From NCBI GenBank assembly GCA_026692725.1, contig JAPMUG010000010.1, forward strand, positions 15,001 through 79,000: a stretch of 64,000 nt of DNA, given 5' to 3'. The notes under the pieces are model-generated. The model was given only the letters and a program-made list of their open reading frames with translations, made no database searches and was not told the origin of the DNA. This document shows, one piece after another, positions 2,317 to 62,879 of this stretch. Made by a program: the position numbers and the translations under genes. The first letter of the stretch is position 1, and each line of letters opens with the position of its first letter. The stretch comes from Ecytonucleospora hepatopenaei. Taxonomy: Eukaryota; Microsporidia; Enterocytozoonidae.

Positions 2317-2385
2317 ACTAACTAACTAACTAAACTAACTAAACTAACTAAACTAAACTAACTAACTAACTAAACTAACTAAACT

Positions 2386-2436
<51 letters not shown>

Positions 2437-2941: not shown

Positions 2942-2976
<35 letters not shown>

Positions 2977-3699: not shown

Positions 3700-3730
<31 letters not shown>

Positions 3731-3856
3731 ACTAAACTAACTAACTACTAACTAAACTAACTAAACTAACTAACTAACTAACTAAACTAACTAACTAAAC
3801 TAACTAACTAACTAAACTAACTAACTAACTAACTAAACTAACTAACTAACTAAACT

Positions 3857-3887
<31 letters not shown>

Positions 3888-4541: not shown

Positions 4542-4542
4542 C

Positions 4543-8538: not shown

Positions 8539-8627
8539 ATATTCAACCTTTTTATTTAAAGCATCCTCCTCTTGGTTTGCTACGTTAACATTATTAAAAT
8601 TATTTTTTCTCTTTTTAAAATCTTCTT

Positions 8628-9272
8628 TTAATTTAAAACAAAAATTAGCAGTATGACCATTCTTTCCACAAAATAAACAAAATCTTTTCTCCTTAGGAAT
8701 ATCTTTAATATTATTAACAGTATTGACGCAAGAATCAACAGAAGCTCCATATCTAATTTTAACATTAGAAAGATTGTTATAAATGAATTCATAGTCAACT
8801 CCCCTCCCGAAGACAAAAGTTTCTCACTCAAAGACTCCGGAAGAATCCTAAGAACAGACGCAATCATAACATCTTCTGGTAAATTTCCAGATAAACCAAC
8901 ACTCTTCACTAAATCTAAAAGACATAAATAATCAGTAAAATCATCTAGTTTTATTTCATTCAACCTATTAATTGCACTTAAAACTTTGTTTTTTCGACAC
9001 CAACGTTCTTTAAATTTATAAGCCAATTCTTCATAAACAACAGAGTCATCTAGACTTTGCAACCAAACCGCTGCGTCTCCCTCAAGACTCATTTTAAAAA
9101 ACAAAACAGCATTTTCACTACTCAATCCAACCACTTTAATATACGAATTCATACTATTAATAAAATTTTCTGGATCTGTTTGTTTAGAGTTACTAAACTT
9201 ACCAGGTGTAATTCGATTTAGCAACATCGCCATATTATTGGAATGATTAGAATATGAATCAAAGTTAGTCAT
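8628..9272 (-). pseudogene. Gag of a Ty3/gypsy element, frameshifted
   Basis: The frame starts MTNFDSYSNHSNNMA and has the helical, Leu-rich pattern of gypsy capsid, including LNEIKLDDFTDYLCLLDLV and a following ILPESLSEKL. After about residue 165 the frame drifts into Ile/Leu-rich nonsense, because a frameshift near 8720-8760 moves the true reading into another frame. In that frame 8650-8690 encodes a zinc knuckle, CLFCGKNGHTANFC (C-X2-C-X4-H-X4-C), the nucleocapsid part of Gag. Capsid and knuckle would assemble and package element RNA in an intact copy. The frameshift and the missing pol make this copy dead. Confidence 0.8.
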
Positions 9273-10994: not shown

Positions 10995-11985
10995 ATGGGA
11001 TCTAAGAAACAGCTTACATTAGAAGAAAAAAGAATTATTTTTAATAGTAAAAATAAATTAAAAATTAAGGATGTTATGGACATAACTGGTAGAAGTAAGT
11101 CTACTATATATAAAATATGGGCTCTTGATGAAATAAATGACACTAAAACTCGCCCTGGACGTCCAAGAATTATTAAAAAAAGAACTATTAAAAAAGTGAT
11201 CAAAAAATCTTATGAAAAAGGTGCTACTGCAAGAACAATAATTGGTGATCTTGGCTTATCTGTGTCAAAAGACACGATAAGAAGGATTTTAAAAAGAGAC
11301 GGGCGCAAAGGCTGGGGAAAACGCAAGCGCTCGCCTGCTTTAACTCCTGAAAAATGCGCTAAAAGGAAAACGTGGGCAAAAGATCACATTTTTTTTCATG
11401 AAAAATGGAATAATGTTATATTTTCCGATGAAAAGAAATTTAATTTGGACGGACCTGACGGCATGCAATACTATTGGCATGACCTTGATTCCGAAAAAGA
11501 GTGGTACAATAGTAGACAATGCCGTGGCGGAGGCGTTATGGTCTGGGGAGCTTTTTGTGCAGATGGAACTGTGCATTTAGAATTTATTCAGGGAAATTTA
11601 ACATCAGGTAAATACAAAAAACTGATGAAAAAAGTGATTTTACCAATAATTAAAAAGTCAGATAAAAATTTAATTTATCAACAAGATAACGCTTCCGTGC
11701 ATGTAGGTGGTGAAATGAGCGGATTTTTTGAAGAAAAGGGCATTTCACTTTTAGATTGGCCTGCATGCTCTCCAGACCTAAACCCAATAGAGAATTTATG
11801 GGGTTGGATGGTTAGAAGGATCTATTTAGGGGGGGCGAAATTATAAAAATTTGATCAGTTTAAAAAATGCAATTTTAGAGGCTTGGAATAGCATACCTCA
11901 AATTTTAATAAATAATTTAATTAATTCAATGACAAATAGGTGTTTGGAAGTCATTGGAAATAATGGAGAGAAGATTAAATATTAA
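10995..11985 (+). pseudogene. Tc1-like DD34E transposase, one late frameshift
   Basis: An N-terminal paired-like helix-turn-helix (LTLEEKRIIFNSKNK..., GRSKSTIYKIW) and GRPR hook precede a DDE domain with NVIFSDEKKFNLDG, LIYQQDNASVH and SPDLNPIENLW. There are 34 residues between the second Asp and the Glu, the DD34E of Tc1 proper. The frame is intact for 283 codons, then breaks in a run of six G (11830-11835). The other frame continues with the expected C terminus to TAA at 11985. One indel therefore separates it from an intact gene of about 330 codons, so it is a young copy. It would bind the repeats and excise and insert the element at TA sites. Confidence 0.9.
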
Positions 11986-24635: not shown

Positions 24636-24950
24636 TTAAAAATGTTTTTTGATTAATTTAATTAAATAGGAGTCATCATTTATTAAACTACTTTTTTGGA
24701 TAAAAAATATTTTGTTTTTAACACGAATTTTAATGTAACATATACACTTAACCATTTTGGTCTTTTTTCCTTTCCCACAAGGGGCAATGCTTCTAAAAAG
24801 GAGTGCTTGGCAACGTATTTTGCTGCCTCTTATATCGATATAATACACTTTATTCTTTAAAATAATTTGCCTTATGCCATAATTAAGTTCCGGCTCTTGA
24901 ACCTTTAATTTTTTAAACGTTAACACGAGCTTAAAAAATTTTTTAATCAT
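24636..24950 (-). CDS. Gene family A, copy 1, unknown
   Basis: The ATG at 24948-24950 is immediately preceded on the coding strand by GACCCCCCGC, a strong CCC-type signal. The 104-residue product (MIKKFFKLVLTFKKL, later SKIRCQALLFRSIAPCGKG) is basic, with several Cys (RCQA, APCGKG, KCICYIK) that might bind metal. No family is recognised. A second copy with the same upstream sequence and a similar N terminus lies at 26600-26907. The upstream CCC run overlaps the end of the gypsy protease frame (its last residues DYQRPPA), so the retroelement was truncated exactly here. Confidence 0.55.
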   Translation of the reverse strand: MIKKFFKLVLTFKKLKVQEPELNYGIRQIILKNKVYYIDIRGSKIRCQALLFRSIAPCGKGKKTKMVKCICYIKIRVKNKIFFIQKSSLINDDSYLIKLIKKHF

Positions 24951-26400
24951 GCGGGGGGTCGTTGATAATCAGTTAAATAAATTTTTGATTTTTGAATGAT
25001 TAAAATATCTGGATCATCGTGTGTTAATGTAGCGGAATTTCGTGGCATATCGACTTCGAAGTTATCAAAAACCACAACATGATTTTTAAAGTCTAAAATG
25101 ATGCCGTTAGTGCACATAAAATGAGTGCCAAGAATTGTTTTTACGCCGGAATTTTTAAAAACATATGTACGGATTTTATAATCTATGTACTGATTATCTT
25201 TTATTGATAAAATTATGTCAGAATACTGGTTAATTGTGACTGTCCTCTTAACGGCTGTTTCGATAGTGCGAGGTGCTGAATCATAGATAGGAATTTGCAA
25301 AATATCAATCATATCTTGTGAGATGTAAGATAGTTCGGAACCCGTGTCAAGTAGGACTTTGACTGGTTGTTGATTGACTGGTCCGTTTAAAATGATTGGA
25401 TCGATTAAAACTGATTGTTGATTAAAAACATAAAGATTACTTTTAGGATGGGTTTTATTATGATCTTTTGTTCTTTGATTACAATCGGTTGATTGATCGA
25501 CGCGCTGTCTTGCCCGACACTCGGATGTATCATGAGTGGTAAATCTATGTATATCACAGTATTTAGATGGCGTTCCATCTTTGTGATGTGTAGGTTGTTG
25601 ATAATTGAACCTGTTTTTTTCTGATCGATTGTTTGTTATAAAATCTATTGTCAGTAAATTGATTAAAGCGCGATTTTTGAGAGGTATGATGTCTGTGGTC
25701 ATGTGGTTCTCTCGTGATTCTTCCAGATGTATACTAGTATAAAATTAAATTTTCTTGTTGAATTATAAAAGTTGAGGTCTCGTTAGCTGTATGTAACTGT
25801 AATCTTGATGTTTCTAGCTGTAATCTAGGATCAAGGTTTTGTATGAAAATTTGATCTGATTGATCTTTGATCTCATTAGATGTCAATTTTTTAATTAGAT
25901 TTATTTCGTGTAAAATTTTCTTTATAGCGAACTGATAGTGTGTTATCAGGTAAAAATTTCGCTGTTTGATATTTTGTAATTGACTGTTGATTACGTGTAT
26001 GTACGAGTCATCATATTTCATTTTGACAAGATCATCTAAGATTTGTTCGATCTTTTTGTGTGATTTTGTAATCTCAAGAACATTTTTTGTAATCAGTGTT
26101 TTGATCATCTTTACAGATTATTCTTCGTTCCATTCGAATGTGTCACAAATGTGTTTAAATTCGTCTATTTAATTTGGTAAATTGATAAGTGATAGATCAT
26201 TAATTATATGTATCTAATTTTTTAATTCAATGTTTGTCTTTTCATCTGCCTTTTTAAATTCTTTGTGTTCATTTTTGTTGTTTGACAGGTTGAATGGTCT
26301 GATATTACTTAGATTGACTTTTTTAAGAAAATGTCGTGATCGGCCGGAAGATTTTCGTGTTTACGATAATATAATAGCATGCAGTGGTTCCATGAACGTT
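24947..26400 (-). pseudogene. Second Ty3/gypsy gag-protease fragment
   Basis: Gag pieces begin near 26400 (RSWNHCMLLYYRKHENLP), continue through 26108-25734 (MIKTLITKNVLEITKSHKK...) and pass by frameshift into 25702-24947. There a Cys/His cluster YCDIHRFTTHDTSECRAR is followed by the aspartic-protease motif VLLDTGSELSYIS and KTILGTHFM. The element differs in sequence from the fragment at 8008-9335, so two gypsy lineages are present. It ends at 24947 before reverse transcriptase. Several stops interrupt the N-terminal half. Confidence 0.75.
24951..24960 (-). promoter_or_regulatory. CCC-type start signal of gene A1
   Basis: GACCCCCCGC is directly before the ATG of A1 and identical before the ATG of A2 (26908-26917). 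CCC-like boxes close to the ATG are known microsporidian gene-start signals. Confidence 0.6.
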
Positions 26401-48436: not shown

Positions 48437-48925
48437 ATGTCTAATATTTTTGCATCACTAAGAAAAGACTTTAAGAAAAGAACCTTCAAGAGGTACCACA
48501 GTGACAGGTACATGAGGGTAGGAGAGTCATGGAGGAAGCCAAGAGGACTGGATAATAGGGTCAGGAAGAAATACAGTGGTACTCCATTGATGCCTAATAA
48601 GAGATTTAGATTACCAGCAATATTAAGAGACAGAGTGGAAGTAGTTAACAATACTAATAATAATACTAATAATAATTTAAACAGTAATACTAATAATAAT
48701 TTAAACAGTAATACTAATAATAATAACACCCTTTCACTTAGAGAATGTGTCATTAGAAATGTAGATGAATTAAGAGCATTATCACCACTTAATTTACAAT
48801 ACTGTGCAACCATAGCAAAGGCAACAGGAAGTAGAAAGAGGATTGAAATAGTTAATGAGGCAAAGAAGCTTAATATTTTATTAACAAATGGAGAGGCAAG
48901 ATTAGCATTAGAAGTACCAGAGTAA
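48437..48925 (+). CDS. RPL32: 60S ribosomal protein eL32, with Asn-rich insert
   Basis: The N-terminal half (KKRTFKRYHSDRYMRV, SWRKPRGLDNRVRKKYSGTP, LMPNKRF) and C-terminal half (ECVIRNVDELRAL, YCATIAKATGSRKRIEIV, LLTNGEARLA) match eL32 in order. Residues 71-98 (48647-48730), just Asn, Thr, Leu and Ser, interrupt the loop where other eL32 proteins have GSNKKTKF-like sequence. The family length is about 130; this one is 162, so the insert accounts for nearly all the difference. It is in frame, has no stop, and repeats the unit NTNNNLNS. Confidence 0.93.
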   Translation: MSNIFASLRKDFKKRTFKRYHSDRYMRVGESWRKPRGLDNRVRKKYSGTPLMPNKRFRLPAILRDRVEVVNNTNNNTNNNLNSNTNNNLNSNTNNNNTLSLRECVIRNVDELRALSPLNLQYCATIAKATGSRKRIEIVNEAKKLNILLTNGEARLALEVPE

Positions 48926-50516: not shown

Positions 50517-51839
50517 TTATATTATTATATATTTTGTATTACTGTTATATATATTATATTTATTATAATTATACATATTATATATATAATATATTATACA
50601 TATTATTATAATTATACATATTATAATTATAGATATTATAATTATTATATTAGTATTATTCTTAGTATTCTTAGTATTTTCTATATTTTCTATATTCTTA
50701 GTATTTTCTATATTTTCTATATTCTTAGTATTTTCTATATTCTTAGTATTTTCTATATTCTCTATATTCTTAGTATTCTCTATATTTTCTATTGTTTCTT
50801 TTATTTCCTCTGCTTTTATTTCATCCATACATATTGCTGTCATAACATTATCATTTATAAAACACATTGATGTAATTATATAATTACTGTTATTAAATAA
50901 AAATTCATATAAATTATCATCATTAATCAAAAAATCATTAAATTTTAAATAATTATCATTATTGTTATTGTTATCATTATATTTTATATTATCGTATTTT
51001 ATATTATTGTTATATTTTATGTTATTGTTATCATTATATTTTATAATTTTATTGTTATCATTATATTTTATAATTTTATTCTTTATATTATTTTCTGTTT
51101 TATTATATGTTTTTTGCTTTCTTATTATTTCTCTATTTCTATATATAAATTCTGTCTTATTTTCCTTATTCATATATATTTGCATTTTATTATTTACATC
51201 AAAGTTTATTTTTTTTAACAGTGTTATATTTTTATTCCTGCACTTAATTAGAAACATGTCTTTTTCTTTATTTGCATTTATTATTATACTTTCATCATAA
51301 ATCACTGGTATTCTATTTTTGCTGCTTTCTGTTACAAATGTCAATTCATTAGTATTTTTATTAGTATTTTCATTAGTATATTCATTAGTATATTCATTAG
51401 TATATTCATTAGTATATTCATTAGTATATTCATTAGTATTTTTTATTAGTATTTTAGCTGGTGCTAATAATTTGTATAATTTACCATTTCTTTTAAAACG
51501 TAACCCAGTAAATAGAGTTATAAAAAAATCTTTATAAATAGTATAAGTGGTATCTTTAAAGATATTTACGGTTATAAAATACTTGTTTTTGAAGGTATAA
51601 GGCAGTTTAGAATCAAAATAAATTGTTTCTTTTTTACCAACTAATTGTTCAATATTTATAAGTTGATTAGGTTCAATTTCAATTACATTAGTATTATTAG
51701 TATTATTTAATGTTTTATTTGTAGTATTAGTATTATTAGTATTATTAGTATTATTAGTATTATTAGTATTATTAGTATTATTAGTATTATTTGATGTTGT
51801 ATAAATAATATTAAATAAATAAAATATTAAAATAAACAT
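50517..51839 (-). CDS. Array membrane protein 1
   Basis: The 440 residues comprise a short N-terminal hydrophobic segment (MFILIFYLFNIIYTTSN), an Asn/Thr tract, a diverged array domain (QLINIEQLVGKKETIYFDSK; YLKFNDFLINDDNLYEFLF) and a low-complexity spacer with NIENTKNIENIENTKN. A transmembrane helix (IIIIISIIIICIIIIICIIY) and a short Tyr/Asn-rich tail follow. A second low-complexity block, NEYTNEYTNEYTNE, is near 155. It is the most diverged member with gene 4. Its stop is close to the convergent multi-pass gene (82 bases), with an 8-mer array between them. Confidence 0.8.
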   Translation of the reverse strand: MFILIFYLFNIIYTTSNNTNNTNNTNNTNNTNNTNNTNTTNKTLNNTNNTNVIEIEPNQLINIEQLVGKKETIYFDSKLPYTFKNKYFITVNIFKDTTYTIYKDFFITLFTGLRFKRNGKLYKLLAPAKILIKNTNEYTNEYTNEYTNEYTNEYTNENTNKNTNELTFVTESSKNRIPVIYDESIIINANKEKDMFLIKCRNKNITLLKKINFDVNNKMQIYMNKENKTEFIYRNREIIRKQKTYNKTENNIKNKIIKYNDNNKIIKYNDNNNIKYNNNIKYDNIKYNDNNNNNDNYLKFNDFLINDDNLYEFLFNNSNYIITSMCFINDNVMTAICMDEIKAEEIKETIENIENTKNIENIENTKNIENTKNIENIENTKNIENIENTKNTKNNTNIIIIISIIIICIIIIICIIYYIYNMYNYNKYNIYNSNTKYIII

Positions 51840-51889
51840 TAACTATATAACAAATTATTATATAACAAATTATTATAAAATAATATAAT

Positions 51890-51985
51890 ATTATGAATTT
51901 ATATTAAGTATTAGAAAATAAGGGAGAAATAATTTTTTTGATATATAAAAATTGATCAAAAACTAATAGCATGATATTTTATTTA
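51890..51985 (-). promoter_or_regulatory. Composite upstream motif, array gene 1
   Basis: On the coding strand TTGATCAA (51952-51959) precedes TTTCTCCCTTATTTTCTAA (CCC at 51922-51924, 85 bases before the ATG). ATATATCAAAAAA lies between them. Confidence 0.65.
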
Positions 51986-51993
51986 TTATACTT

Positions 51994-53217
51994 TTATACC
52001 ATCAATAATTCCTTTTTATGGTCTAATGCTATTGTTTTATATTTATAATAATATAATATAATTAATATAATAACTAATATAAACAATGTAATTGAAGTTA
52101 TAAAAATAATCATAGTAATATTTTTTACTTTATTAGCTGTATTATCTTTATTTTTATTTATTGTAATATTATCATCCTTTAATAAACTATTATCATCCTT
52201 TAATAAACTATTATTAGCTGATAAACTATTATTTTCTAATAAATTATTATCCTTTAATAAATTATTATGATTAGTATCATTTCCTCTTTGTTTTTTACTA
52301 TCTTGTATAACTTCTTGATCTCCAACTACTTCTTTTACTTTAATTTCTTTTATTGTATTACCCACTACTGTGCTATCTACCAAACAAGACCATAATTTTA
52401 TCATTACATTAGCTCCATTTAGAAACTCATTTAAATCATCACTCACAATCAAAAAATCATTAAAATTAAAAACAGGATATAAATTTGTATTTTCATAATA
52501 TACGCTATTTTTACCATTTTCATTTTTTACCTTTAATATTTCCTCAGTTTGGTCTTTTATATTATTTAATAGCATAATAGACATTTCATCTTTTAATTTA
52601 CAAAAAGATAAATTAAAATCTTCCTTGCTTTTTGTGTCATTGTTAATTTTAAGCTTAACAAATTTATCAAAAATGTTTTGTTTCAGACCATGCTTACTGT
52701 TTAATCTCACCAATAAATCATTTTTATTATTAAAATCAATCATTTGGTCCAAAACAAATTTATCACTTACATCCAATTCTTGTGTATTTTCATGTGTAAT
52801 AAGTTTTAAAACACCATTTATCATTGTAAACTTAATTTCTTCTAATGTAATAACATTTTTAATAATTCCATTTATTTTAACCTTAATTTTAGATCCCTCT
52901 GCAAGGTAAAAAAATGTTCTTTTAAAAAATTCAAATGATTTTTCACTATTTTCTACTTTTAAGTTAATACGTGTATTATTTTCTAGTGGAAAGTTAAAAC
53001 CTTCATCACCAAAATTGTTTTCTTTACTTATATATTGCTCAACAAAAACAAATTGATTTGAATCAATTGCAATTCCAGTATCTTCCTTTATAGTAAATAT
53101 ATTTTTATTATCTACATCTATATCATCAGAAATATTTAAAATTGCATTAGAATTATTTTTATCATTTAAAATTGTTGTTTTAACTAATAAAATATTATTA
53201 AATAAACCTATAAACAT
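51994..53217 (-). CDS. Array membrane protein 2
   Basis: The 407-residue protein starts MFIGLFNNILLVKTTILN. The ectodomain includes IFTIKEDTGIAIDSNQFVFV, EQYISKENN, FPLENNTRINLKVENSEKSF, ITLEEIKFTMINGVLKLITH and FNDFLIVSDDLNEFL, all with close counterparts in gene 3. A spacer rich in SLLKDDN repeats (about 325-350) leads to the transmembrane helix MIIFITSITLFILVIILIIL and a tail KYKTIALDHKKELL. Several N-x-[S/T] sites exist. It is most similar to gene 3, so the pair probably duplicated last. Function unknown; likely secreted to a membrane or the cell surface. Confidence 0.85.
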   Translation of the reverse strand: MFIGLFNNILLVKTTILNDKNNSNAILNISDDIDVDNKNIFTIKEDTGIAIDSNQFVFVEQYISKENNFGDEGFNFPLENNTRINLKVENSEKSFEFFKRTFFYLAEGSKIKVKINGIIKNVITLEEIKFTMINGVLKLITHENTQELDVSDKFVLDQMIDFNNKNDLLVRLNSKHGLKQNIFDKFVKLKINNDTKSKEDFNLSFCKLKDEMSIMLLNNIKDQTEEILKVKNENGKNSVYYENTNLYPVFNFNDFLIVSDDLNEFLNGANVMIKLWSCLVDSTVVGNTIKEIKVKEVVGDQEVIQDSKKQRGNDTNHNNLLKDNNLLENNSLSANNSLLKDDNSLLKDDNITINKNKDNTANKVKNITMIIFITSITLFILVIILIILYYYKYKTIALDHKKELLMV

Positions 53218-53264
53218 TGTATTAATATATTATATAACTTTATATTTTAAAATATTATATCAAT

Positions 53265-53335
53265 TTTAAAGTATCAGAAAATAAGGGAGAAATAAAATTT
53301 TTTGATATGTAAAAAATGATTAAAAACCAATAGTA
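53265..53335 (-). promoter_or_regulatory. Composite upstream motif, array gene 2
   Basis: The coding strand has TTTTTAATCATTTTTTACAT (a decayed palindrome), ATATCAAAAAATTT and TTTCTCCCTTATTTTCTGA (CCC at 53285-53287, 70 bases before the ATG). Confidence 0.6.
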
Positions 53336-53402
53336 TGATATTTTTGTTTTAAAAGTATTAACAATAAAATTTAAGAAAAATAGCATTTATTTAAGAAAAT
53401 AT

Positions 53403-55169
53403 TTAAATCATTATTAATTTCTTTTTTTGTCTTATTTTTATATATTTTTTATAATAGTATAATATAAATAATATAATAGTTAATATAAACAATAAAAATG
53501 AAGTTATAAAAATAATAATAGCAATATTTTTATCTTTATTAATTGTATTATCTTTATTTATTGTAATATTTTTATTTTCTTTATTTTTATTTTTACCTAT
53601 TAATTTATCTTTATTTAATAAAATATTTTCTTCTTTATTTTTATTTAATAAAATATTTTCTTCTTTATTTTTATTTAATAAAATATTTTCTTCTTTATTT
53701 TTACTTAATAAAATATTTTCTTTATTTACTGTAATAAGTTTATTCTCTTCTAAATTATTTTTATTATTTATTTTATTATGATAGCGATTATTTTTATTTT
53801 TTAAATTATCAGTATATAAATTATTATCAGTATATAAATTATCTTTTTTATGTTTATTAACACCCATATTTATATTTGATTCTTCTTTATATTTAGTAAA
53901 ACACATATCTTCTTCTTCTACACCTAAATCTTCAACCTTCACTTCATCTTCTAATTCTTTATTATTATTCTGTTTACTTCCACAATCAATAATATTGCTA
54001 TTTAATACTTCTTTACTTTCTTTACTGTTTATATGATTATCTTTCATATTTAATAAATTATTTTTATATTTTACTTTTTTTAATTTATCTGTAATAGTTG
54101 ATATTTTTAATTTATCATTGATAGTTTTTATACTATTTTTAATAATTTTTGTAATATTTTTAACAGTTTTTATATTATTCTTTATAAAATGTGTTTTTCT
54201 TTCATTTTCTAATTTAACATTTTCATTTTCATATTCTGATTCCTCATTTATAGTTGATAGTGATAGGTTTATTTTCCTCAAATTCATTTTATATGGCTGA
54301 ATATATGTATTATCATTTATTACATTTATATCCTCTAATATTTCTCCTTCTACTTCATTATTTGCATAAAACCCTAATATTCTAACTTCAAAATCGCAAT
54401 TATAGAAAAATGTGTTTGTTTCATCATTTATAATTATAAAATCATCAAAACTACATTCTTTTATTCCTCTTTTTTGTTTATACTCAATTTTATACTCATT
54501 ATTTTCATTTTTTACTTTTAAATTTGTAGTTTTTTTATCTATATAATCGCTTTTCAATGTAATTGAGGTATTATCTGAATTATTATAAAAAGATAATACA
54601 TAATCTTTATAGCTAGTTACATCAATTTTAATATATTTATCAAAATTTCTTTGTGTTTTTTTATATTTTTTAAAAAATATACTATTTGCACTATTTAACC
54701 ATAAAACATGATTTAAACAATTTATCTTTTTCTTGTTTAAATTTTGTAAATTTTCTTTTGTTATTAGTTTTAATTCTCCTTTGGTTATTTTAAACTTTAT
54801 ATCCTCTTGTAGTTTGACATTTTTTTCAATTTCACCTATTTTAACCTTAATTTCGTATCTCTTTGGTAAATTAAAAGAGGTTTTTTTGTAAAATTTAAGT
54901 GGTTTTTTGCTATTTTTTACCTTTAAATTAACATGAGTGTTTTTTTCTAAGGGAAATTGAATTTGTTTGAAATTTTCTAAATTTTCATTTTTACTTATAT
55001 GCTGTGCAATTAAAACCACATGATATGATTCCATTGTGAATTTTGTACCTTTTTTAATTGTTAAAACATCATCAGCGGATGTATTTTTTACAGCAGAATT
55101 GTTGGTTGTGCGTTCTTTTTCTTTGGTCGTTTTAAAAAATAAAATATAATTTAGTAAGTTTATAAACAT
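53403..55169 (-). CDS. Array membrane protein 3
   Basis: The 588-residue protein starts MFINLLNYILFFKTTKEKE. Its ectodomain closely follows gene 2: VLTIKKGTKFTMESYHVVLI, AQHISKNEN, FPLEKNTHVNLKVKNSKKPL, IKFKITKGELKLITKENL and FDDFIIINDETNTFF. It is longer because of a charged spacer (about 300-540) with KSESK-type sequence and exact repeats of ENILLNKNKE. The transmembrane helix IIIFITSFLLFILTIILFIL and tail KKYIKIRQKKKLIMI end it. Repeats in the spacer are likely to vary in number between strains. Two repeated 33-base segments lie in its upstream region. Confidence 0.85.
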   Translation of the reverse strand: MFINLLNYILFFKTTKEKERTTNNSAVKNTSADDVLTIKKGTKFTMESYHVVLIAQHISKNENLENFKQIQFPLEKNTHVNLKVKNSKKPLKFYKKTSFNLPKRYEIKVKIGEIEKNVKLQEDIKFKITKGELKLITKENLQNLNKKKINCLNHVLWLNSANSIFFKKYKKTQRNFDKYIKIDVTSYKDYVLSFYNNSDNTSITLKSDYIDKKTTNLKVKNENNEYKIEYKQKRGIKECSFDDFIIINDETNTFFYNCDFEVRILGFYANNEVEGEILEDINVINDNTYIQPYKMNLRKINLSLSTINEESEYENENVKLENERKTHFIKNNIKTVKNITKIIKNSIKTINDKLKISTITDKLKKVKYKNNLLNMKDNHINSKESKEVLNSNIIDCGSKQNNNKELEDEVKVEDLGVEEEDMCFTKYKEESNINMGVNKHKKDNLYTDNNLYTDNLKNKNNRYHNKINNKNNLEENKLITVNKENILLSKNKEENILLNKNKEENILLNKNKEENILLNKDKLIGKNKNKENKNITINKDNTINKDKNIAIIIFITSFLLFILTIILFILYYYKKYIKIRQKKKLIMI

Positions 55170-55199
55170 TTAAATATATAACTATTATAAATTTTAAAA

Positions 55200-55320
55200 A
55201 TATATCAATTTTTCAACTATTAGAAAATAATAATATATATCAATTTTTCAACTATTAGAAAAAAAGGGAAAAAATTTTGATATAAAAAAATTGATCAAAA
55301 ACCAATAGTATAATTTTATA
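55200..55320 (-). promoter_or_regulatory. Composite upstream motif, array gene 3
   Basis: TTGATCAA is at 55291-55298 and CCC at 55266-55268, 99 bases before the ATG. A 33-base segment ending CAACTATTAGAAAA is duplicated at 55200-55265. Confidence 0.65.
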
Positions 55321-55390
55321 AAATTTATTTTCTTAATTTTTTAGCATAATCATTTATTTTATAAAATATTTTCTTTTATTTTTTTATCAA

Positions 55391-56557
55391 TTATATTTTT
55401 TCTGTTTCAATTTCTTTATCCTTTTTATTTTTTCTGTTCTTTATTTTTTTAAAAATAAAAAAGATACAACTACTAACTGCAATTACATAAAAAACAGAAG
55501 TTATAAAAAATATTACAGGACCTATTGTATTTTTTGTTTCATTTTTGTCGTTTTTAAATAAATTTTCAAATCTTTTATCTAATTCCTTATTTAATTTTTC
55601 ATTAACACTATAACTTGATTTATTTTTGTAAGCATCTCTTTCTTTATTTTCATTTATTAAAGAATTAGTTTTTTCATCAGAAAAAATATTTTTAATGTCA
55701 TCTTTTTTTACTACTTTAACTTCTTCTTCTGTTTTACCTGTTAATTCTCCCTCGTTTAAAAAGGTCACCATATTATCCAATGTAAAAGATTCATTATCAG
55801 ATAATAAAAAATCCTTAGTGATGTTATTTACCAAAATAAAATCTTTAAATTTATTAGGATAAAATTTATCAATGCTGGTAAATTCTAACTTTTCTTCTTC
55901 ACCATCCTTCTTTAGCATCAAAACATTCATCATATTTGTTGTAATTTCTTTTGGTATTTCTAATTCAATTTCATTCAAATGATTTTTATTCAATTCTATA
56001 AAGAGAAGTCGATCTTTTTTGGAAATAAAACTTGCTGTTTCTTCAGGTCTTTCTTCACTGTAATTTATCATTATTTGTGTGCTTTCATTTATTTTCCACA
56101 TTTCAAGTAATTCATCACAGTTTATATTTTTAACAAACTTTTCTTTATTATCCCTTGTAAATAACTCTATTTTACCTTTATTTATGGAAAACCTAAACAT
56201 ATTTAAGTTTTTATAAATATCTTCTTTTCCATTTTTATTTTTAACCATAATTTCAGAATCAACATTTATAAGATACATAACTTTTTTATAAACTTCAAAA
56301 GGTTCTTCCCTATTTTTAGCAAAAATTTCTGTTTTATTTGTTATCCATTGGTTTATAGCTTTTAAATACATAGATTTTTTTGCCATTACCTGTAAAACAA
56401 CTACTAATTGAAACTCACTCATTTTAAATTCAGTTCCTACAGGTAATGTTATTATATTTATATTTCCATTATCAATATACTTATCATTATAATTATCACT
56501 ACATAAGATAAAAATATTCATAATTGAATATAAAAATATCATACATTTCAGCATCAT
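55391..56557 (-). CDS. Array membrane protein 4
   Basis: The 388-residue protein has a signal-like start (MMLKCMIFLYSIMNIFILCS), an ectodomain with ITLPVGTEFKMSEFQLVVVL, QVMAKKS, FEVYKKVMYLINVDSEIMVK, FRFSINKGKIELFTRDN and FKDFILVNNITKDFLLSDNE, and a charged spacer. A transmembrane helix, VIFFITSVFYVIAVSSCIFF, and tail KKIKNRKNKKDKEIETEKI end it. The order of segments matches genes 2 and 3 but identity is lower, and low-complexity sequence is limited to the spacer. The MM start leaves the exact first Met open. Confidence 0.8.
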   Translation of the reverse strand: MMLKCMIFLYSIMNIFILCSDNYNDKYIDNGNINIITLPVGTEFKMSEFQLVVVLQVMAKKSMYLKAINQWITNKTEIFAKNREEPFEVYKKVMYLINVDSEIMVKNKNGKEDIYKNLNMFRFSINKGKIELFTRDNKEKFVKNINCDELLEMWKINESTQIMINYSEERPEETASFISKKDRLLFIELNKNHLNEIELEIPKEITTNMMNVLMLKKDGEEEKLEFTSIDKFYPNKFKDFILVNNITKDFLLSDNESFTLDNMVTFLNEGELTGKTEEEVKVVKKDDIKNIFSDEKTNSLINENKERDAYKNKSSYSVNEKLNKELDKRFENLFKNDKNETKNTIGPVIFFITSVFYVIAVSSCIFFIFKKIKNRKNKKDKEIETEKI

Positions 56558-56609
56558 TTTAGAAATAATTTGTTTAATAAAATATCTAAATTTACAAAAA
56601 TATTATAAT

Positions 56610-56665
56610 TTTAATAAAGGGACTATTTATTTATATGATAAAAATGTGATCAAATAATAATAAGT
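56610..56665 (-). promoter_or_regulatory. Composite upstream motif, array gene 4 (weak)
   Basis: TGATCA at 56647-56652 and CCC at 56619-56621 (64 bases before the ATG) keep the order, but the sequence around them has diverged. Confidence 0.45.
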
Positions 56666-57157
56666 CATTTTTACTCCTTTACTTATTTTTATATAACAAA
56701 CTTATTGTGAAAATACACATTAAAAAATATAAAAGAAATTTAAAACAATAAGGCATTATATTTTTATTAGGGATTTAAGTTTATAAAAAAATCATGTTTT
56801 TTTACTACATATAAACTTTTATTCATTAATAAAGTTATATTTTAATAATAAATATTTAATTTGCATGTTAAGAACAACTTAATTAACAAACTAAATAATT
56901 TTTAAAACAGCTGTAAGAAGATGAGGTAGTCACTTATTTTTAATCATATATTTTGTTAAATAATCATAGTAAAAATTAAAAAATATTTTTAAATATTTAA
57001 AAAAGTTGTTAGAAATTTTCAATCTAGTTGTTAAATACTATTTTTTATATTTATAATAAACCAAAAAAGTATGTTATTTTTTATTAACCTTAAATATTTA
57101 AATTTTATAATATTTAAAAAATATAAAGCAGGTAAATTGAAATATTTTAACCTTAAT
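56666..57157. other. AT-rich intergenic between array genes 4 and 5
   Basis: This is the longest gap within the array. No gene, repeat end or second motif copy was seen. Confidence 0.5.
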
Positions 57158-58354
57158 TTATTTATTCCTATTTTTAAGTTTAATTATTAAACTTATATAG
57201 AAAAATATTAAAAATATGGAACTTATGCTAAAACTTGCCAAAATTCCAATAACATACATCCATAAAAGACTATAATCCCTACAAGAACCGTCATAATCAA
57301 CACCATCATTCATTTTATTTTTATTCTCATCATAATACTCAACTTTAAATTCTCCATAAGAATTAGCATTTATTTCACTTTCATTAGATAAAAATGCATA
57401 AGTAGCAATATATTTATATTCTTCATTTATATCATTTTCATTTAGTTTAAAAAGCGTTATAAATATACCTCTCTCAAATAAAAGTGACCTATACTTTATA
57501 TCTTCCTCTTTTACGTCTAAATCGTGTTTTTCTTTATATGATTGTTGTGTTTTTTCTAATGCTTTTTCACAACATTCAAGATACAAATAATCTTTATCTA
57601 TATCAATGTCATTAGTATCATATAAATTATTTTTATTTTTAATATTAAATTTAACTGGAATATCTTTACTAAAAATCAATTGTGCAGGTTTATAAAGTCT
57701 TTCAATTTTATTATCATTGTTATAACATTCTACAAACACATTTTTACTAACAATTAATTTATAATTATTTAAAGCTAACATTTTTTTAGTTAGTAAATTA
57801 CCCAGAAAGTCATATTTCTCATTATTTAATAAAGTATCATCACTAACTAACACTAATTCTATTTTATCACTGTTATTTTTTACTTTATCACTGTTATTTT
57901 TTACTCTATCATTCATATTAGGATTACTGCTATTATTTTCATCAACATTACTATTGTTTAAATTTATGATTATACTGTGTAATAATTTATATTTCTTATC
58001 TTTTACCTTTATTATGGCTCCCTTATTTAATACCAAATATTTATCCAAATAAAACATTTCTTTACCATCTAATCCTCTTACCTCATATGGTTTGCTATCA
58101 ATAAAATTATATATTTTATTTTTATCACTTATTGTATTTTTAAAATATGCTACTTGTAACATATAAATTAATTCATTATTGCAAATAGTAAAAACAGTAT
58201 TTTTATTTATAGTTTGAACATTATTACCATTTATATCATGTTTTATATCATTATTTATATTATTAGCAATAAAATCAATATTAGAGGTAATTATGTCATT
58301 ACCAGTATAAATTAAATTTAATATGCAAAATATATTAAAATTACACATATTCAT
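57158..58354 (-). CDS. Array membrane protein 5
   Basis: The 398-residue protein starts MNMCNFNIFCILNLIYTG. Its ectodomain includes VQTINKNTVFTICNNELIYM, YLVLNKGAIIKVKDKKYKLL (106-125) and FLSNESEINANSYGEFKVEY before the membrane helix (LLWMYVIGILASFSISSIFL) and a short tail KLKNRNK. There is almost no spacer. Several Cys (ECCEKALE, SCRDYS) could form disulfides, unlike genes 2-4, which have fewer. It pairs with gene 6 by shared sequence. Confidence 0.82.
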   Translation of the reverse strand: MNMCNFNIFCILNLIYTGNDIITSNIDFIANNINNDIKHDINGNNVQTINKNTVFTICNNELIYMLQVAYFKNTISDKNKIYNFIDSKPYEVRGLDGKEMFYLDKYLVLNKGAIIKVKDKKYKLLHSIIINLNNSNVDENNSSNPNMNDRVKNNSDKVKNNSDKIELVLVSDDTLLNNEKYDFLGNLLTKKMLALNNYKLIVSKNVFVECYNNDNKIERLYKPAQLIFSKDIPVKFNIKNKNNLYDTNDIDIDKDYLYLECCEKALEKTQQSYKEKHDLDVKEEDIKYRSLLFERGIFITLFKLNENDINEEYKYIATYAFLSNESEINANSYGEFKVEYYDENKNKMNDGVDYDGSCRDYSLLWMYVIGILASFSISSIFLIFFYISLIIKLKNRNK

Positions 58355-58369
58355 TAAGAAATATATTAT

Positions 58370-58560
58370 TTAAATATAAATATCAACTATTAGTTTTATA
58401 CTTATTAAATATAAATATCAACTATTAGTTTTATACTTATTAAAAATAGAACTATCAACTATTAGTTTTATAATTTTTAAATATAAAAATCAACTATTGA
58501 AAATTAAGGGACAAATAAAAAATTTTTGATATGTATGAAATTGATCAAAAATCAATAGTT
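58370..58560 (-). promoter_or_regulatory. Composite upstream motif with 36-bp repeats, array gene 5
   Basis: TTGATCAA is at 58541-58548 and CCC at 58508-58510. Between the motif and the ATG, three to four copies of a 36-base unit containing TATCAACTATTAGTTTTATA (58380-58480) lengthen the spacing to 156 bases. Confidence 0.65.
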
Positions 58561-58726
58561 TTTTTTATTTATTTGAAATATTTAGTAAATGTTGGTTAAA
58601 GTAGAATTTTTTTGAGTTTTTTATGTAATGTTTTTTAATATCAGTAATTTTTTAAAGAAATATATCATGGATTAAAAACATTTTAAAATTATTAAGGTTA
58701 TTATAAAAGTATAAAGTATAATGTTG
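58561..58726. other. Short AT-rich gap
   Basis: No feature is recognised. Confidence 0.4.
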
Positions 58727-58825
58727 GGTTTTCAAATTATATTATTTATTTTTACAAAATTTTACCCACATTATTTTATTTAATAAATGACTAACTTTGA
58801 TCCATATTCTAATCATTCCAATATA
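58727..58825 (+). mobile_element. Gypsy leader and first Gag codons (99-bp remnant)
   Basis: GTTGGGTTTTCAAATTATAT, TTACAAAATTTTACCCACAT and the Gag start MTNFDPYSNHSN reproduce the complement of 9230-9335 with few changes. The sequence then breaks off in an ATAAAAT repeat. Confidence 0.85.
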
Positions 58826-58905
58826 TAAAATATAAAATATAAAATATAAAATATAAAATATAAAATATAAAATATAAAATATAAAATATAAAATATAAAA
58901 TACAA
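58825..58905. repeat. ATAAAAT 7-mer microsatellite
   Basis: About 11 copies of TATAAAA abut the gypsy remnant. Confidence 0.9.
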
Positions 58906-58926
58906 TGTATTAATTAGTTATATAAT

Positions 58927-60888
58927 TTAATTATTTTCCATTATATTTCTCTTTCTTTTATTTTTTAAATATAATAATATAATCATTAATATTATACAAA
59001 CTACTATTACACTGCCAACTATTATAAAATATTTTTTATAATTATGTGGTTTAGTTTTTTGTTTATCATTAGAATTATTAGTTGATACTTTCTGAGTTTC
59101 CCCATCCAATTTATTCTTTACATCATTTCTTAACTTCCTTTTGCTTAGTTTTTCTGTTTCAATTTCATTTTCTTTTAAGAATTGCTGGTAATTCAATTGA
59201 TTTTTAAGGCTAATTTCTTCTTCCAATTGTTTTTTAAACTTAAACTTATCTTCTTCCAGTACTTTGTTTAGTAAATTTGCATTTTTAAGTCTTTCTTTCA
59301 AATCATCTAAAACATTTTTATTTTCTTCAAGTTCATCTAATAACCGTTCTTTTTCTTCTTTAAATTGCTGTTTTAAATTACAAATTTCGTTATCTTTTTC
59401 TTTAACCTCATTAAGTAAATTGTTATTACCAAATTTATCCTTTTTTAATAATGTATTTTCTTCTTCTTTATTTTTTAATTTTTTACTCAAATCATTTATA
59501 CTTTTTTGACAGTCAAGTAATTCGTTTTGATTTATTGCAAATGAATAATTAATTTTTTCTTTTTCTTGTTTTAGTTTTTTAATAGTTTCTTCTTGTTTTA
59601 AAATTGTTTCTTTTTGTTTTTTTACTTCTAAATTTTTTTTTTCTAAATCATCTTTTTTAAATTCTAACAAAAGGTTATTTATGTGAATTTCGTTTTCATG
59701 TATACTAATTTTATTTTTATAACTTTCAATTGTTTTATTTAAATGATTTATTTGATCTTCAAAATTTTTCTTTTCTTCTTCTTTTTCTTTATTCAAATCA
59801 TCTAAATTAATTTTCAATTTTTGTATTTCTTCTGTTACTTCTCTTACTTTAATGACATCATCTATATCATCTATAACTTTCTCTGTATATTTTTCAACTT
59901 TAAATGACTGTAATGACTTAGCACTAACACTTTTTGTATTTGTCAAATACACATTTACATTTTCATATAATAAATCCACATTATCTGAACTATTTTTAGT
60001 ATTTAATATTCTAGATATGTGGTATTTTAAAGCACCTTGATTAAACAAAATATTCCTTAACTTTAAATTATTAAAATTAATTTTATCACCAAATTTATAA
60101 TCTTCTAATTGATTATTATCATTGTATTTAAAATTAATATAATTTTTACAATTATCAAATATTAAATTGTTAAATATACTAACTTTAGTATTTAAAATTT
60201 TCATGTTAAATTGATTATTTTTATTATTAGTTGTGAATAAATTAACAGATTCATTTTCTTTTAAATTTATTGGAATAAACTTGGTATTAGCCTGCCTATC
60301 ATTTTTTTCATTAAAACATTTATAATATTTTAAATTCTGATCATTCCTAAGGTTTATTGGATAATAATTCATTACATAATCATACCTAGCACTTCTTAAC
60401 TTAGTATCTTTATTTATAACCAATAAATCAGTCTTACCTTTTATATCTATAAATACATTATGTAATAATTTATAATTATATTCTTTATTACTCAAATTAT
60501 CTTTAACCTTAATTATTGCACCTTTATTAAGCATAAAATAGTTATCAACATAAAAAGAAATATCATTTGATTTTTTATCATCCTTATCAAATGGTAATAC
60601 ATATGGTATACCATCTTCAAAATTATAAGTTTTATTTTCTTTTTCGTTAGCATATGTTATTTTCTTATCTTTATTTGCTATTTGCACCATTAAAAGTAAT
60701 TCACCTGAGCATATGGTAAATGAAGTATTTCTTCCAAATGTAAAAATTTCAGATTTATTATAATCATGATTATAATCAGCATGATATAATTTAGTGCTAA
60801 TAAGAAAATCAATATTTTTAGCTATATTTTCAGTAACATTAGAATTAGTGCATAATATTAAAATATTTAAAAAATAAATATTGAACAT
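58927..60888 (-). CDS. Array membrane protein 6, with coiled-coil stalk
   Basis: The 653-residue protein starts MFNIYFLNILILCTNSN. An ectodomain to about 345 includes FTFGRNTSFTICSGELLLMV, YFMLNKGAIIKVKD (117-130), KEYNYKLLHNVFIDI and YLTNTKSVSAKSLQSFKVEK, all paralleled in gene 5. Residues about 350-595 form a long heptad-rich coiled coil (EEIQKLKINLDDLNKEKEEE onward). Then come the helix YFIIVGSVIVVCIILMIILL and a basic tail KNKRKRNIMENN. The coiled coil suggests an oligomeric, rod-like stalk or a reach toward a partner. No known family is recognised. Confidence 0.85.
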   Translation of the reverse strand: MFNIYFLNILILCTNSNVTENIAKNIDFLISTKLYHADYNHDYNKSEIFTFGRNTSFTICSGELLLMVQIANKDKKITYANEKENKTYNFEDGIPYVLPFDKDDKKSNDISFYVDNYFMLNKGAIIKVKDNLSNKEYNYKLLHNVFIDIKGKTDLLVINKDTKLRSARYDYVMNYYPINLRNDQNLKYYKCFNEKNDRQANTKFIPINLKENESVNLFTTNNKNNQFNMKILNTKVSIFNNLIFDNCKNYINFKYNDNNQLEDYKFGDKINFNNLKLRNILFNQGALKYHISRILNTKNSSDNVDLLYENVNVYLTNTKSVSAKSLQSFKVEKYTEKVIDDIDDVIKVREVTEEIQKLKINLDDLNKEKEEEKKNFEDQINHLNKTIESYKNKISIHENEIHINNLLLEFKKDDLEKKNLEVKKQKETILKQEETIKKLKQEKEKINYSFAINQNELLDCQKSINDLSKKLKNKEEENTLLKKDKFGNNNLLNEVKEKDNEICNLKQQFKEEKERLLDELEENKNVLDDLKERLKNANLLNKVLEEDKFKFKKQLEEEISLKNQLNYQQFLKENEIETEKLSKRKLRNDVKNKLDGETQKVSTNNSNDKQKTKPHNYKKYFIIVGSVIVVCIILMIILLYLKNKRKRNIMENN

Positions 60889-61015: not shown

Positions 61016-61323
61016 TATATAAATTTATTTTTTATATAGTTTTTATAAAGATGTATATTCTAAATCATTTTTTAATGATATATCACCTATTTTTACAAAT
61101 ACAATCAGTGTCATGTACTTTCTTTATAAAAGGGTTAAATAAATTCATTTTCATTCTTTTTTATTATTTTAGTTGGTTTTGTCACTGCCGTGCTGAAGAA
61201 TTTCTTTGAAACGCTAAAATTTTTAAAAAATTTATTTATTCTATCCAGTATTTATATTTATTTCTAAAACGTGTTTATCTATTTGATAAGTTTGTCTTTT
61301 TAAACAACAATTTTATTTAAATA
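61016..61323. other. AT-rich gap before Tc1-D
   Basis: The 67-codon frame at 61006-61209 overlaps the array-gene-6 upstream motif and has no family signature, so I do not call it. Confidence 0.4.
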
Positions 61324-61569
61324 CAGTGCTACGCAAAAGTTTAGAAATCTCCAAAATATGGGCAAATAAAATTTTTAAAAGAAAAAACTTTAAAAACAAC
61401 CCTTTAAGCAAAAAATTTATTAAAAATTATCTAAAATGGTCTATTTTTTGCTATAAATTAATTATATTAAAAATGTTTATATAAAAAATACCCTGATCAA
61501 AAATTTTTTAAAAAACGCAAAAGTTTAGAAAAATTAACAATTTTATTTTATCTCCATAATTTTTTATAA

Positions 61570-62516
61570 CTTCCAAGCAACGATAAGCATTGACTCAACT
61601 AATTTTTTTATTAAATAATCAGGTATACCATTTCATGTTTCTAAAATTGCATTTTTTCATTCAATTTTTGATCTGTAATTTTTACCGTTTTTATATACCT
61701 GTTGGACCATCCAACCCCATATATTTTAAAAAGGATTTAGGTCTGGAAAGCAGGATGGCCATTTTAATATACCTATTTTTTTATTTCAAAAAATCTCACC
61801 ATATCTCCTTTCACATGCACACTTGTATTATCTTGCTGATAAATTTAATTTTCATCAGAGTTATATACAAGCGGAACAATGACTTTTTTCATCAGATTTC
61901 GGTACGAACCTGAAGTCATATTGCCCTCAATAAATTCAAGGTGCAATGTTCCTTGTGCTGAAAAGGCTCCCCATACCATTAAACCTCCTCCCTTACATTG
62001 GCGTTTAGAATACACTTCCCTTGGAAGTGATTTATCATACCAATAATATTGCATGCCATCTGGGCCATCAAGATTGATTTTTTTATTTGAAAAGATGACA
62101 TTATTCCATTCCCTGTCCCATTTGACATGTCTAATTGCCCAATCGAACATGAATTGTTTTTTAATAAAATTTAAAGCCGAAGAAGGCTTTGCTTTTCACT
62201 AGTCTTTATTTTTATCCAAAAGAACCCTATTTACAGTGTCATGTGACACATTCAGGTTCCATTCTCTATCAATTTTCTAGAAGTAGTTTTTTTCTTGCTT
62301 GCTTCATTGACTATTTTAATAACTCTATCTGAGAGTAATTTAGGTCTTCCTGATCTTGCCGAGCACACTACTGGCTTGTTATTTTTCCAAACACGACTCA
62401 CTGACGACTCTGATCTGCATGTGACCTGAGCTATCTGGCTTAGTGTCAACTTATTATTCTTGCACCTAATCATAGTCTCTTGTTCAGTAAGAGATAATTG
62501 ATTCTAGCGCTCCATG
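61570..62516 (-). pseudogene. Tc1-like transposase D, several breaks
   Basis: The start at 62516 reads MER and then a stop; the frame from 62473 gives the helix-turn-helix (LTLSQIAQVTCRSESSVSRV) and SGRPKLLS. A frame from 62150 gives FDWAIRHVKWDREWNNVIFS followed by NKKINLDGPDG, in which the first catalytic Asp is Asn, then GGGLMVWGAFSAQGTLHLEF. From 61845 the remainder (LIYQQDNTSVH-type region and SPDLNPFE) is in other frames. Stops, indels and the lost catalytic residue show an inactive copy. Confidence 0.75.
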
Positions 62517-62551
62517 GCTATTTTAACACAAAAAATAGTTAATCGAAAGAA

Positions 62552-62563
62552 GAGGGAAAATTT
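62552..62563 (-). promoter_or_regulatory. Putative promoter box of Tc1-D transposase
   Basis: The coding strand reads AAATTTTCCCTC, CCC 40 bases before the ATG at 62516. Confidence 0.45.
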
Positions 62564-62879
62564 ATAAATAAAAACATGTTTTTTAATCAATTTTCTAAAC
62601 TTTTGCGTAATTTATTTTTTTTTAAATTTGCCCTTATGTTTTTAAATAAACAATAAAAAAAGATATGGTTTAAAAAAACATTTTTTTATAAAAATTTGAT
62701 GGGTTCTAACTATTTGCTATTGTGTGTGATGCCTTAAATGAGTAAATACAAAATTTTCTAAACTTTTGCGTAGCACTGTTTCAAAATGTATATAAAAATG
62801 TTAAACTTTGATTTTAAGTGTTGGTTAATAAATAAAGTGTTTCTATGGCTATTTTTTTATGTTTAAACTTATTAGTGGA

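What the first reader, a model, noticed from the sequence alone, without database searches (positions are those of the whole stretch)
50517..60888. Head-to-tail array of six related membrane proteins with variable stalks
Six consecutive minus-strand genes share one plan: short signal-like N terminus, ectodomain, spacer of very different length (none to a coiled coil of about 245 residues) and a C-terminal helix with a short tail. Pairs 2/3 and 5/6 are closest, so the array grew by tandem duplication. The shared segments (K-G-T-x-F near the start, NKGAIIKVKD, FxDFxIxxD) match no family I know. A diversifying surface family is a reasonable inference; function is not known.
Basis: partly seen in the sequence, partly recalled or inferred. 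Interest (0 to 1): 0.78.

Follow-up and report, generated by a model that had tools for sequence, protein, structure and literature searches.

The report
Secreted shrimp-parasite protein family, shared promoter
A row of related membrane-anchored proteins in a single-celled parasite of farmed shrimp belongs to a group of fast-diverging, probably exported proteins, several of whose genes carry the same short DNA signal just in front of them, which may help to list what the parasite shows to its host.

Summary
Six intact minus-strand genes (50517-60888) encode paralogous single-pass membrane proteins: hydrophobic N terminus, divergent ectodomain, spacer, C-terminal membrane helix, short basic tail. 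The array runs past the window (a seventh gene, 54% identical to gene 6 over 354 residues), with single copies on contig 2 and, less surely, contig 6. The genome is that of the shrimp microsporidian Ecytonucleospora hepatopenaei: a fetched protein matches its EHP00_865 at 300/303 residues. The quoted motifs belong to subgroups, not to all six. No ectodomain matched Pfam or PDB; structure models are low-confidence and beta-rich.

New here: four array genes and the contig-2 copy share an upstream box, CTATTNNTTTTTGATCA, found 25 times in 3.09 Mb with at most one mismatch, against 3 for the reversed pattern and 6 for a scramble. By eye 18 of 25 sites lie beside genes with hydrophobic N termini (12 of 25 by a crude score). 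The box led to a second array of seven genes on contig 12, apparently without membrane helix, and to dispersed relatives of it. Their homology to the window's array is suggestive, not proven.

Best reading: lineage-specific host-exposed proteins, partly co-regulated through the box. Function and location are inferred.

The parts
50517..51839 (-). M1, 440 aa; Asn/Thr-rich repeats, membrane helix at residues 398-416; weakest member of the array
51953..51969 (-). upstream box of M1 (exact); CCCTT of the composite at 51920-51924
51994..53217 (-). M2, 407 aa; helix at residues 370-388
53317..53333 (-). upstream box of M2 (one mismatch to CTATTNNTTTTTGATCA)
53403..55169 (-). M3, 588 aa; long N/K-rich spacer, helix at residues 551-569
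53604..53722 (-). four copies of a 30-nt (10-residue) repeat in the M3 spacer
55292..55308 (-). upstream box of M3 (exact); CCCTT of the composite at 55264-55268
55391..56557 (-). M4, 388 aa; helix at residues 348-366; no box within one mismatch
57158..58354 (-). M5, 398 aa; almost no spacer, helix at residues 369-387
58362..58498 (-). leader of M5: four copies of a 35-nt repeat that contain the AATAGTTGAT element
58542..58558 (-). upstream box of M5 (exact); CCCTT of the composite at 58506-58510
58927..60888 (-). M6, 653 aa; helix at residues 621-639; no box within one mismatch
59089..59835 (-). coiled-coil spacer of M6 (residues 352-600)
   Evidence: 0 of 2000 shuffles reach its heptad signal
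60409..60558 (-). M6 residues 111-160, almost identical to M7 between diverged flanks

Best explanation
The six genes are part of an array of at least seven that encodes type-I single-pass surface proteins of the microsporidian Ecytonucleospora hepatopenaei. A signal peptide takes the protein into the secretory path; a probably beta-rich, fast-diverging ectodomain is displayed outside the parasite plasma membrane, held off it by a spacer that ranges from almost nothing to a coiled coil of about 250 residues, and anchored by one helix with a short basic tail. Part of the array, with at least one other clan of probably exported proteins (a second head-to-tail array on contig 12, apparently without membrane helix), is switched on together through an upstream box with a palindromic TGATCA core and a CCC-type start signal, most likely in the intracellular stages that touch the host cell. 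The repertoire grew by tandem duplication, perhaps with local gene conversion. Shown: genes, paralogy, layout, array extent, box and its over-representation, species. Inferred: signal-peptide function, surface location, co-expression, host contact.
For: Intact ORFs and one terminal hydrophobic stretch in 8 of 8 members M1-M8. Paralogy. Species: 300 of 303 residues identical to EHP00_865. Box: 25 sites with at most one mismatch against 3 (reversed) and 6 (scramble); 4 of 7 array genes and the contig-2 copy have it; in the window 6 matches of a slightly looser pattern against 0.55 expected. Exact sites: 9 of 9 beside hydrophobic N termini by eye, 7 of 9 by a crude score, against 21 of 69 in the background (P 0.009). 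Composite box TTTTTGATCA..AATAGTTGA: 8 sites, control 0, six of them just before contig-12 array genes. The box is kept where the proteins are only about 20-25% identical. Large, lineage-specific families with signal peptides or membrane helices are the class enriched among proven host-exposed microsporidian proteins (PMC5423893, passages).
Against: No expression or localisation data. Signal peptides rest on crude scores. M4, M6 and M7 lack the box at one mismatch, so it does not cover the array. Counting one-mismatch sites too, the crude score gives 12 of 25 against 21 of 69 (P 0.09), and 7 of 25 sites have no suitable gene even by eye. A looser form of the box (two mismatches) is less enriched, 29 against 14. 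The composite with CCCTT (12 sites, control 1) includes a gene that looks like serine hydroxymethyltransferase (my label) and two sites without an ORF. Homology between the array and the contig-12 clan is only suggestive. Absence of relatives elsewhere is not established: two of three protein searches were capped and the first missed M5 itself.
Confidence: 0.55

Rival explanations
1. The proteins are structural parts of the spore (wall or polar-tube-associated membrane proteins) made during sporogony and do not act on the host cell.
For: Microsporidian spore proteins also have signal peptides, low complexity and coiled coils (established knowledge). Genes with Cys-rich or Pro-rich hydrophobic-start products that could be spore proteins lie about 9-17 kb beyond M7 on the same contig (L007:9356 onward, L008:862-1827 and 8030-8944); Pfam gives them no family above cut-off.
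Against: Tandem expansion, strong divergence between paralogues and anchored as well as free forms fit host-exposed families better (compare PMC5423893, passages). No similarity to named spore proteins was found, though only Pfam and PDB were searched.
Confidence: 0.2
2. They are resident membrane proteins of the secretory path (ER or Golgi), with an internal role.
For: Single-pass layout and short basic tail fit any membrane. M6 has a match to the Golgi protein Psg1 below the curated cut-off (E 0.0023, residues 598-649, membrane segment and tail only).
Against: Tandem expansion and fast divergence are unusual for such proteins; the Psg1 match does not touch the ectodomain.
Confidence: 0.1
3. 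The box is a relic of duplication or a general promoter part, not a regulon signal; array genes share it because upstream DNA was copied with the genes.
For: Array genes are tandem copies; longer upstream similarity exists for M1-M3 (66 nt at 76-80%). Some box or composite sites lie beside genes without hydrophobic N termini. CCC is a general microsporidian signal (PMC2803860, passages).
Against: The box also precedes genes on contigs 6, 7, 8, 10, 11 and 12 whose products show no detectable similarity to the array (for example L023, L025, L039, L048). It is rare in the genome and kept where proteins have diverged to about 20-25% identity.
Confidence: 0.3

Closest known systems
Microsporidian large gene families of host-exposed proteins (NemLGF families and others; PMC5423893, PMC10393165, passages seen)
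   Same: Many paralogues with signal peptide or C-terminal membrane helix, no known domain, lineage-restricted as far as seen, clustered
   Different: No sequence model of those families was available to test. Here the members lie in head-to-tail arrays with spacers of very different length and share an upstream box with other probably exported genes
CCC-type start signal of microsporidia (PMC2803860, passages seen)
   Same: CCCTT follows the box in M1, M3 and M5
   Different: In Encephalitozoon the signal lies immediately before the start codon; here about 80-150 nt before the ATG of M1, M3 and M5, and the box lies further upstream
Species-specific upstream motifs of Trachipleistophora hominis (40 candidates, PMC3486916, passages seen)
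   Same: Short motifs upstream of sets of genes in a microsporidian
   Different: The motif lists are in supplements I did not see; none was reported in the passages as marking exported families
DOG box of cyst nematode effectors (recalled, not looked up)
   Same: A short promoter motif shared by unrelated secreted-protein genes and usable to predict new ones
   Different: Unrelated organism and sequence; there tied to a gland cell, here no expression data

Membership tests
Microsporidian large gene family (definition as in PMC5423893 and PMC10393165) | At least 10 paralogues in one species | tested here: inconclusive
   Array clan: M1-M8 plus a probable copy on contig 6 = 9, a lower bound. 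Contig-12 clan: 7 array genes plus L024, L026, L040, L060, L061 = 12. One family only if the two clans are related, which is not proven.
Microsporidian large gene family (definition as in PMC5423893 and PMC10393165) | At least half of members with signal peptide or membrane helix | tested here: met
   Membrane stretch in 8 of 8 of M1-M8. Of the 10 contig-12-clan genes read, 3 have one (L040, L060, L061) and 7 do not, L057 and L026 not being read to their ends; hydrophobic N termini by crude score only.
Microsporidian large gene family (definition as in PMC5423893 and PMC10393165) | Restricted to genus or species (true of 59 of 68 families, not all) | tested here: inconclusive
   Protein searches found near-identical alleles and EHP00_865 only; two of three were capped at about 7990 candidates and the first missed M5 itself.
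Microsporidian large gene family (definition as in PMC5423893 and PMC10393165) | Experimentally host-exposed members | not testable with these tools
   Needs proximity tagging or localisation.
NemLGF1/3/4/5 of Nematocida | Match to the family-specific HMM | not tested
   Those models were not available here.
Pfam-A families, among them LRR, ricin-B lectin, DUF1609 (InterB) known from other microsporidian families (presence of these models in the library is recalled) | Score above the curated cut-off | tested here: not met
   None of the six proteins reaches a cut-off; the best sub-threshold hits lie mostly on membrane segments. None of nine contig-12-clan proteins has a hit better than E 0.016.
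Known folds of the PDB | Structural match of the ectodomain | tested here: inconclusive

The most novel reading that the evidence does not exclude
The box (CTATT, two free bases, TTTTTGATCA, often with CCCTT or AATAGTTGA after it) is the binding site of one stage-specific transcription factor, perhaps a dimer given the palindromic TGATCA core, that switches on a set of host-exposed proteins: several hyper-divergent families, anchored and free, on many chromosomes. Protein similarity barely joins them but their promoter does, so the box would be a protein-independent marker for the host-contact repertoire of a shrimp pathogen.
Probability: 0.3. Interest if true: 0.75.

Novelty: new member of a known kind. 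Interest (0 to 1): 0.5.

Why it matters
E. hepatopenaei slows the growth of farmed shrimp with severe economic loss (start of the abstract of PMC11081493, seen in the listing), and what it shows to the host cell is largely unknown to my knowledge. A family of candidate surface proteins, and a promoter mark that points to further candidates where protein similarity fails, would give named targets for antibodies, diagnostics and expression studies. If the box is a true regulon signal, it also makes stage-specific gene control in a microsporidian testable.

Tried and rejected

Homology of box genes to the array: a profile of the M1-M8 ectodomains found none of the other box genes. In a leave-one-out block test, with seeds picked by eye, 11 of 18 segments scored above all 64 unrelated ORFs and 7 did not (M1, M4, L026a, L056, L038, L053, contig-6 copy). 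Trained on the array alone, only L040 of 16 candidates beat all 64 (6 of 500 shuffles as high). Trained on dispersed genes alone, only M5 of 12 did (2 of 500); M7 at the right place and M2 at a wrong place each lost to one. Trained on M5-M8, of 14 candidates M2 and M3 beat all 64 at the right place, and M1, L036 and L056 did so off or only partly on it. Column-shuffle nulls gave a few scores near 131 (1 of 100 in each direction; 2 of 200 and 4 of 200; those cover 3-24 columns); I set them aside as an alignment artefact after viewing one (8 columns); the rest stayed below 18 against 33 observed. Cutting the first 28 residues lowered the array-to-dispersed score from 33 to 20-22.

Gene conversion between M6 and M7: third positions agree in 47 of 50 codons inside the tract and 199 of 289 outside (P 5e-5), and the 66-nt identical run exceeds all 3000 codon shuffles; but a test on shared residues alone is not significant (p 0.10), since AT bias makes 86% of them share codons. 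The pair L056/L059b on contig 12 shows the third-position effect (83 of 100 against 113 of 193) but an ordinary longest run (26 nt; 572 of 3000 shuffles as long). Possible, not claimed.

Species: Glugoides intestinalis was considered because of a TTAG telomere and 13 contigs (PMC12449221) and rejected on size (5.13 against 3.09 Mb).

Papers: passages of PMC5423893 (and its section 9), PMC3749934, PMC13174016, PMC12558613, PMC12449221 (and its section 6), PMC3486916, PMC2803860, PMC10393165; all others in search listings only. The searches nearest to an upstream motif of exported genes were made; no report of this box was seen there or in the passages read, which does not prove that none exists.
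Full report
WHAT WAS CHECKED. The window is contig 1, positions 15001-79000, of a 3.09 Mb genome in 13 contigs. All six reported ORFs exist, intact, at the stated coordinates on the minus strand. Each has one hydrophobic 19-residue stretch near the C terminus, followed by 11-24 residues, and a hydrophobic N terminus by at least one of two crude scores. Among the six, M2/M3 (E 1e-37) and M5/M6 (E 1e-16) are closest. Profile comparison joins M2-M4 to M5-M8 (E 2e-8, score 45) and M1 to the pool (E 3e-8, score 44), though M4 alone and M1 against single groups are weak. These are single-comparison E-values; as a yardstick, 72 of 73 other ORFs later scored at most 20 against the M1-M8 profile. The 73rd, at 41, is a gene on contig 6 with the same layout (L021:248 onward) that I count as a probable member.

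THE ARRAY IS LONGER. A search with M6 found a seventh gene just past the window (contig 1: 79493-81145, 550 aa; 54% identity over 354 residues, 35% over the first 124) and a single copy on contig 2 (70707-71927, 406 aa). Searches with M2 and M4 found only M3 and nothing else respectively, which shows how far the members have diverged. Between M6 and M7 lie frame fragments that look like a Tc1/mariner element (my label) between 33-nt inverted repeats at 61315-61347 and 62755-62787; Pfam gives one sub-threshold helix-turn-helix match there.

SPECIES. A protein of a second array on contig 12 matches EHP00_865 of Ecytonucleospora hepatopenaei in 300 of 303 aligned residues. The TTAG-type repeat at the start of the window and of contig 2 agrees with the 4-base telomere unit reported for other members of the Enterocytozoonida clade (PMC12449221, PMC13174016; passages).

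SPACERS. M6 has a coiled-coil signal over residues 352-600 (0 of 2000 shuffles as high), M7 a weaker one (7 of 2000), M3 and M2 none (1008 and 621 of 2000). M3 has four copies of a 10-residue repeat. 'Variable stalk' is right, but the stalks are not of one nature.

THE UPSTREAM BOX. Upstream sequences laid side by side showed a common stretch. CTATTNNTTTTTGATCA with at most one mismatch occurs 25 times in the genome, against 3 for the reversed pattern and 6 for a composition-matched scramble; allowing two mismatches in a longer form, the excess is smaller, 29 against 14. In the window a form with one more free base occurs 6 times against 0.55 expected; four of the six are the array boxes. The box precedes M1, M3 and M5 exactly and M2 and M8 with one mismatch; M4, M6 and M7 lack it at this stringency. 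In M1, M3 and M5 CCCTT follows within 45 nt, like the microsporidian CCC signal (PMC2803860). Of the nine exact sites, all lie by eye beside the start of a gene with a hydrophobic N terminus; of the sixteen one-mismatch sites, nine do; three of these eighteen genes are on the opposite strand, 13-28 nt from the box. Seven sites have no such gene. A crude score is less generous: 7 of 9, 5 of 16, and 21 of 69 in the background (P 0.009 for exact sites, 0.09 for all). The background came from the same fetched stretches and holds other probably exported neighbours, so it is not a sample of the genome. Of the 12 composite sites with CCCTT (control 1), seven repeat box sites, two more (L048, L053) precede genes with hydrophobic starts by eye, one precedes a gene that looks like serine hydroxymethyltransferase (my label), and two have no ORF nearby.

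WHERE THE BOX LED. Box genes with a membrane helix lie on contigs 6 (L021), 7 (L036), 8 (L022) and 12 (L040). Sites on contig 12 opened a second array: a search with one of its proteins found seven head-to-tail genes between 46860 and 57898. The first, as fetched, shows no ATG-started frame of full length; I left it at that. Five were read, one of them not to its end; none has a hydrophobic stretch beyond residue 40 above 0.97. The composite TTTTTGATCA..AATAGTTGA occurs 8 times in the genome, control 0: six just before genes of this array, one 1.6 kb before its first gene, one before M3. The contig-12 clan is homologous to the dispersed genes L024, L026 (two domain copies), L040, L060 and L061 (profile scores 48-54, E 6e-7 to 4e-6, best of 100 column shuffles 22). 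Four other box-linked genes (L023, L025, L039, L048) have hydrophobic starts by eye, no membrane stretch and no similarity to either clan.

ARE THE TWO CLANS ONE FAMILY? By eye both share a strand-rich N-terminal part, a block of the type F-x(6)-F-x-L-x-K-x-T/G-x-I and a D-x(3)-F-L block before the spacer. With N termini included the pooled contig-12 profile scores 33 (E 0.001) and, in the other direction, 27 (E 0.008) against the array; without the first 28 residues 20-22 (E 0.04-0.07), and 17-28 when subgroups are left out, against 12-13 for reversed and unrelated control profiles; in five of six leave-outs both directions pick the same segment. Single-sequence tests were mostly negative. 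I call this suggestive. If it is wrong, the box joins unrelated families; if right, it joins branches of one family too diverged for sequence search.

EVOLUTION. Crude dN/dS is 0.53 (M2/M3), 0.75 (M6/M7) and 0.77 (M5/M6) over ectodomains, and 1.1 for the first 110 residues of M6/M7; composition bias makes these rough. M6 and M7 are almost identical over M6 residues 111-160 (96% of residues, dS 0.04) between diverged flanks, which would fit gene conversion, but codon bias keeps the stricter test from significance (p 0.10). Against diversification within the species: three allele pairs from other data differ by 1 of 376 residues (M4), by a 2-residue indel near the membrane (L040), and by 3 of 303 residues in the tail plus tail length (L058).

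STRUCTURE AND DATABASES. No Pfam family above cut-off for the six, no PDB relative by sequence (best E 0.11), no fold match. The two AlphaFold2 models (mean pLDDT 48) both show strands through the first 130-160 residues and a three-strand unit at the end of the ectodomain, with a low-confidence middle; their alignments overlap, so the agreement is not independent. The protein searches returned near-identical alleles of M4 and L040, M5 itself and EHP00_865; two of the three were capped and the first missed M5. Restriction to this lineage is likely but not shown.

HOW IT WORKS, MOST LIKELY. Host-exposed type-I surface proteins of the intracellular stages, displayed at different heights, partly co-regulated with other probably exported proteins through the box. 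Shown: genes, layout, paralogy, extent, box over-representation, species. Inferred: signal-peptide cleavage, plasma-membrane location, co-expression, host binding. This kind of family is known in microsporidia; the promoter box tied to such genes is the part I have not seen described (listings; passages).

Noticed in passing
window 1-4545: A 4.5 kb tract of CTAA/CTAAA units without a single G. It lies 15 kb inside the contig as assembled, with other sequence further out; contig 2 starts with about 1.5 kb of TTAG/TTTAG units that then turn into CTAA. Interstitial telomere-like repeat or assembly effect.
   Followed up: partly
window 61315-62787: Between array genes 6 and 7: frame fragments that look like a decayed Tc1/mariner element within 33-nt, 91% inverted repeats; a longer Tc1-type transposase (DDE_3, HTH_Tnp_Tc3_2 above cut-off) is at 10995-11846 and a Ty3-like aspartyl protease at 24947-25702.
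   Followed up: partly
window 48437-48925: Ribosomal protein eL32 (Pfam L32e, two stretches) carries a long Asn/Thr-rich insertion between the matched stretches; uL13 at L007:6944-7660 has a similar low-complexity insert.
   Followed up: no
L007:3271-4155: Next to the seventh array gene: mRNA capping triphosphatase beta chain (PF02940, E 2e-17), also with Asn-rich repeats.
   Followed up: no
L007:9356-9991, L008:862-1827, L008:8030-8944: Three plus-strand genes beyond the array with hydrophobic starts and Cys/Pro-rich N termini; two look related by eye. No Pfam family above cut-off; possible spore proteins.
   Followed up: partly
L022 (minus strand, ORF of 331 aa) next to the box gene L022: Neighbour starts with a hydrophobic stretch and then LLPKGTEF-like text as in M4 and L036; scored 20 against the array profile, not above the null.
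   Followed up: no
L061:306-1655 and L026: Genes with more than one copy of the ectodomain-like unit in tandem: L026 carries two, and L061 starts with what looks like the end of another unit.
   Followed up: partly
L011:9141-9900: A run of about 480 bases of C/A/T almost without G near the start of contig 2, giving a Pro/His/Thr-only reading frame; biology or assembly error unclear.
   Followed up: no
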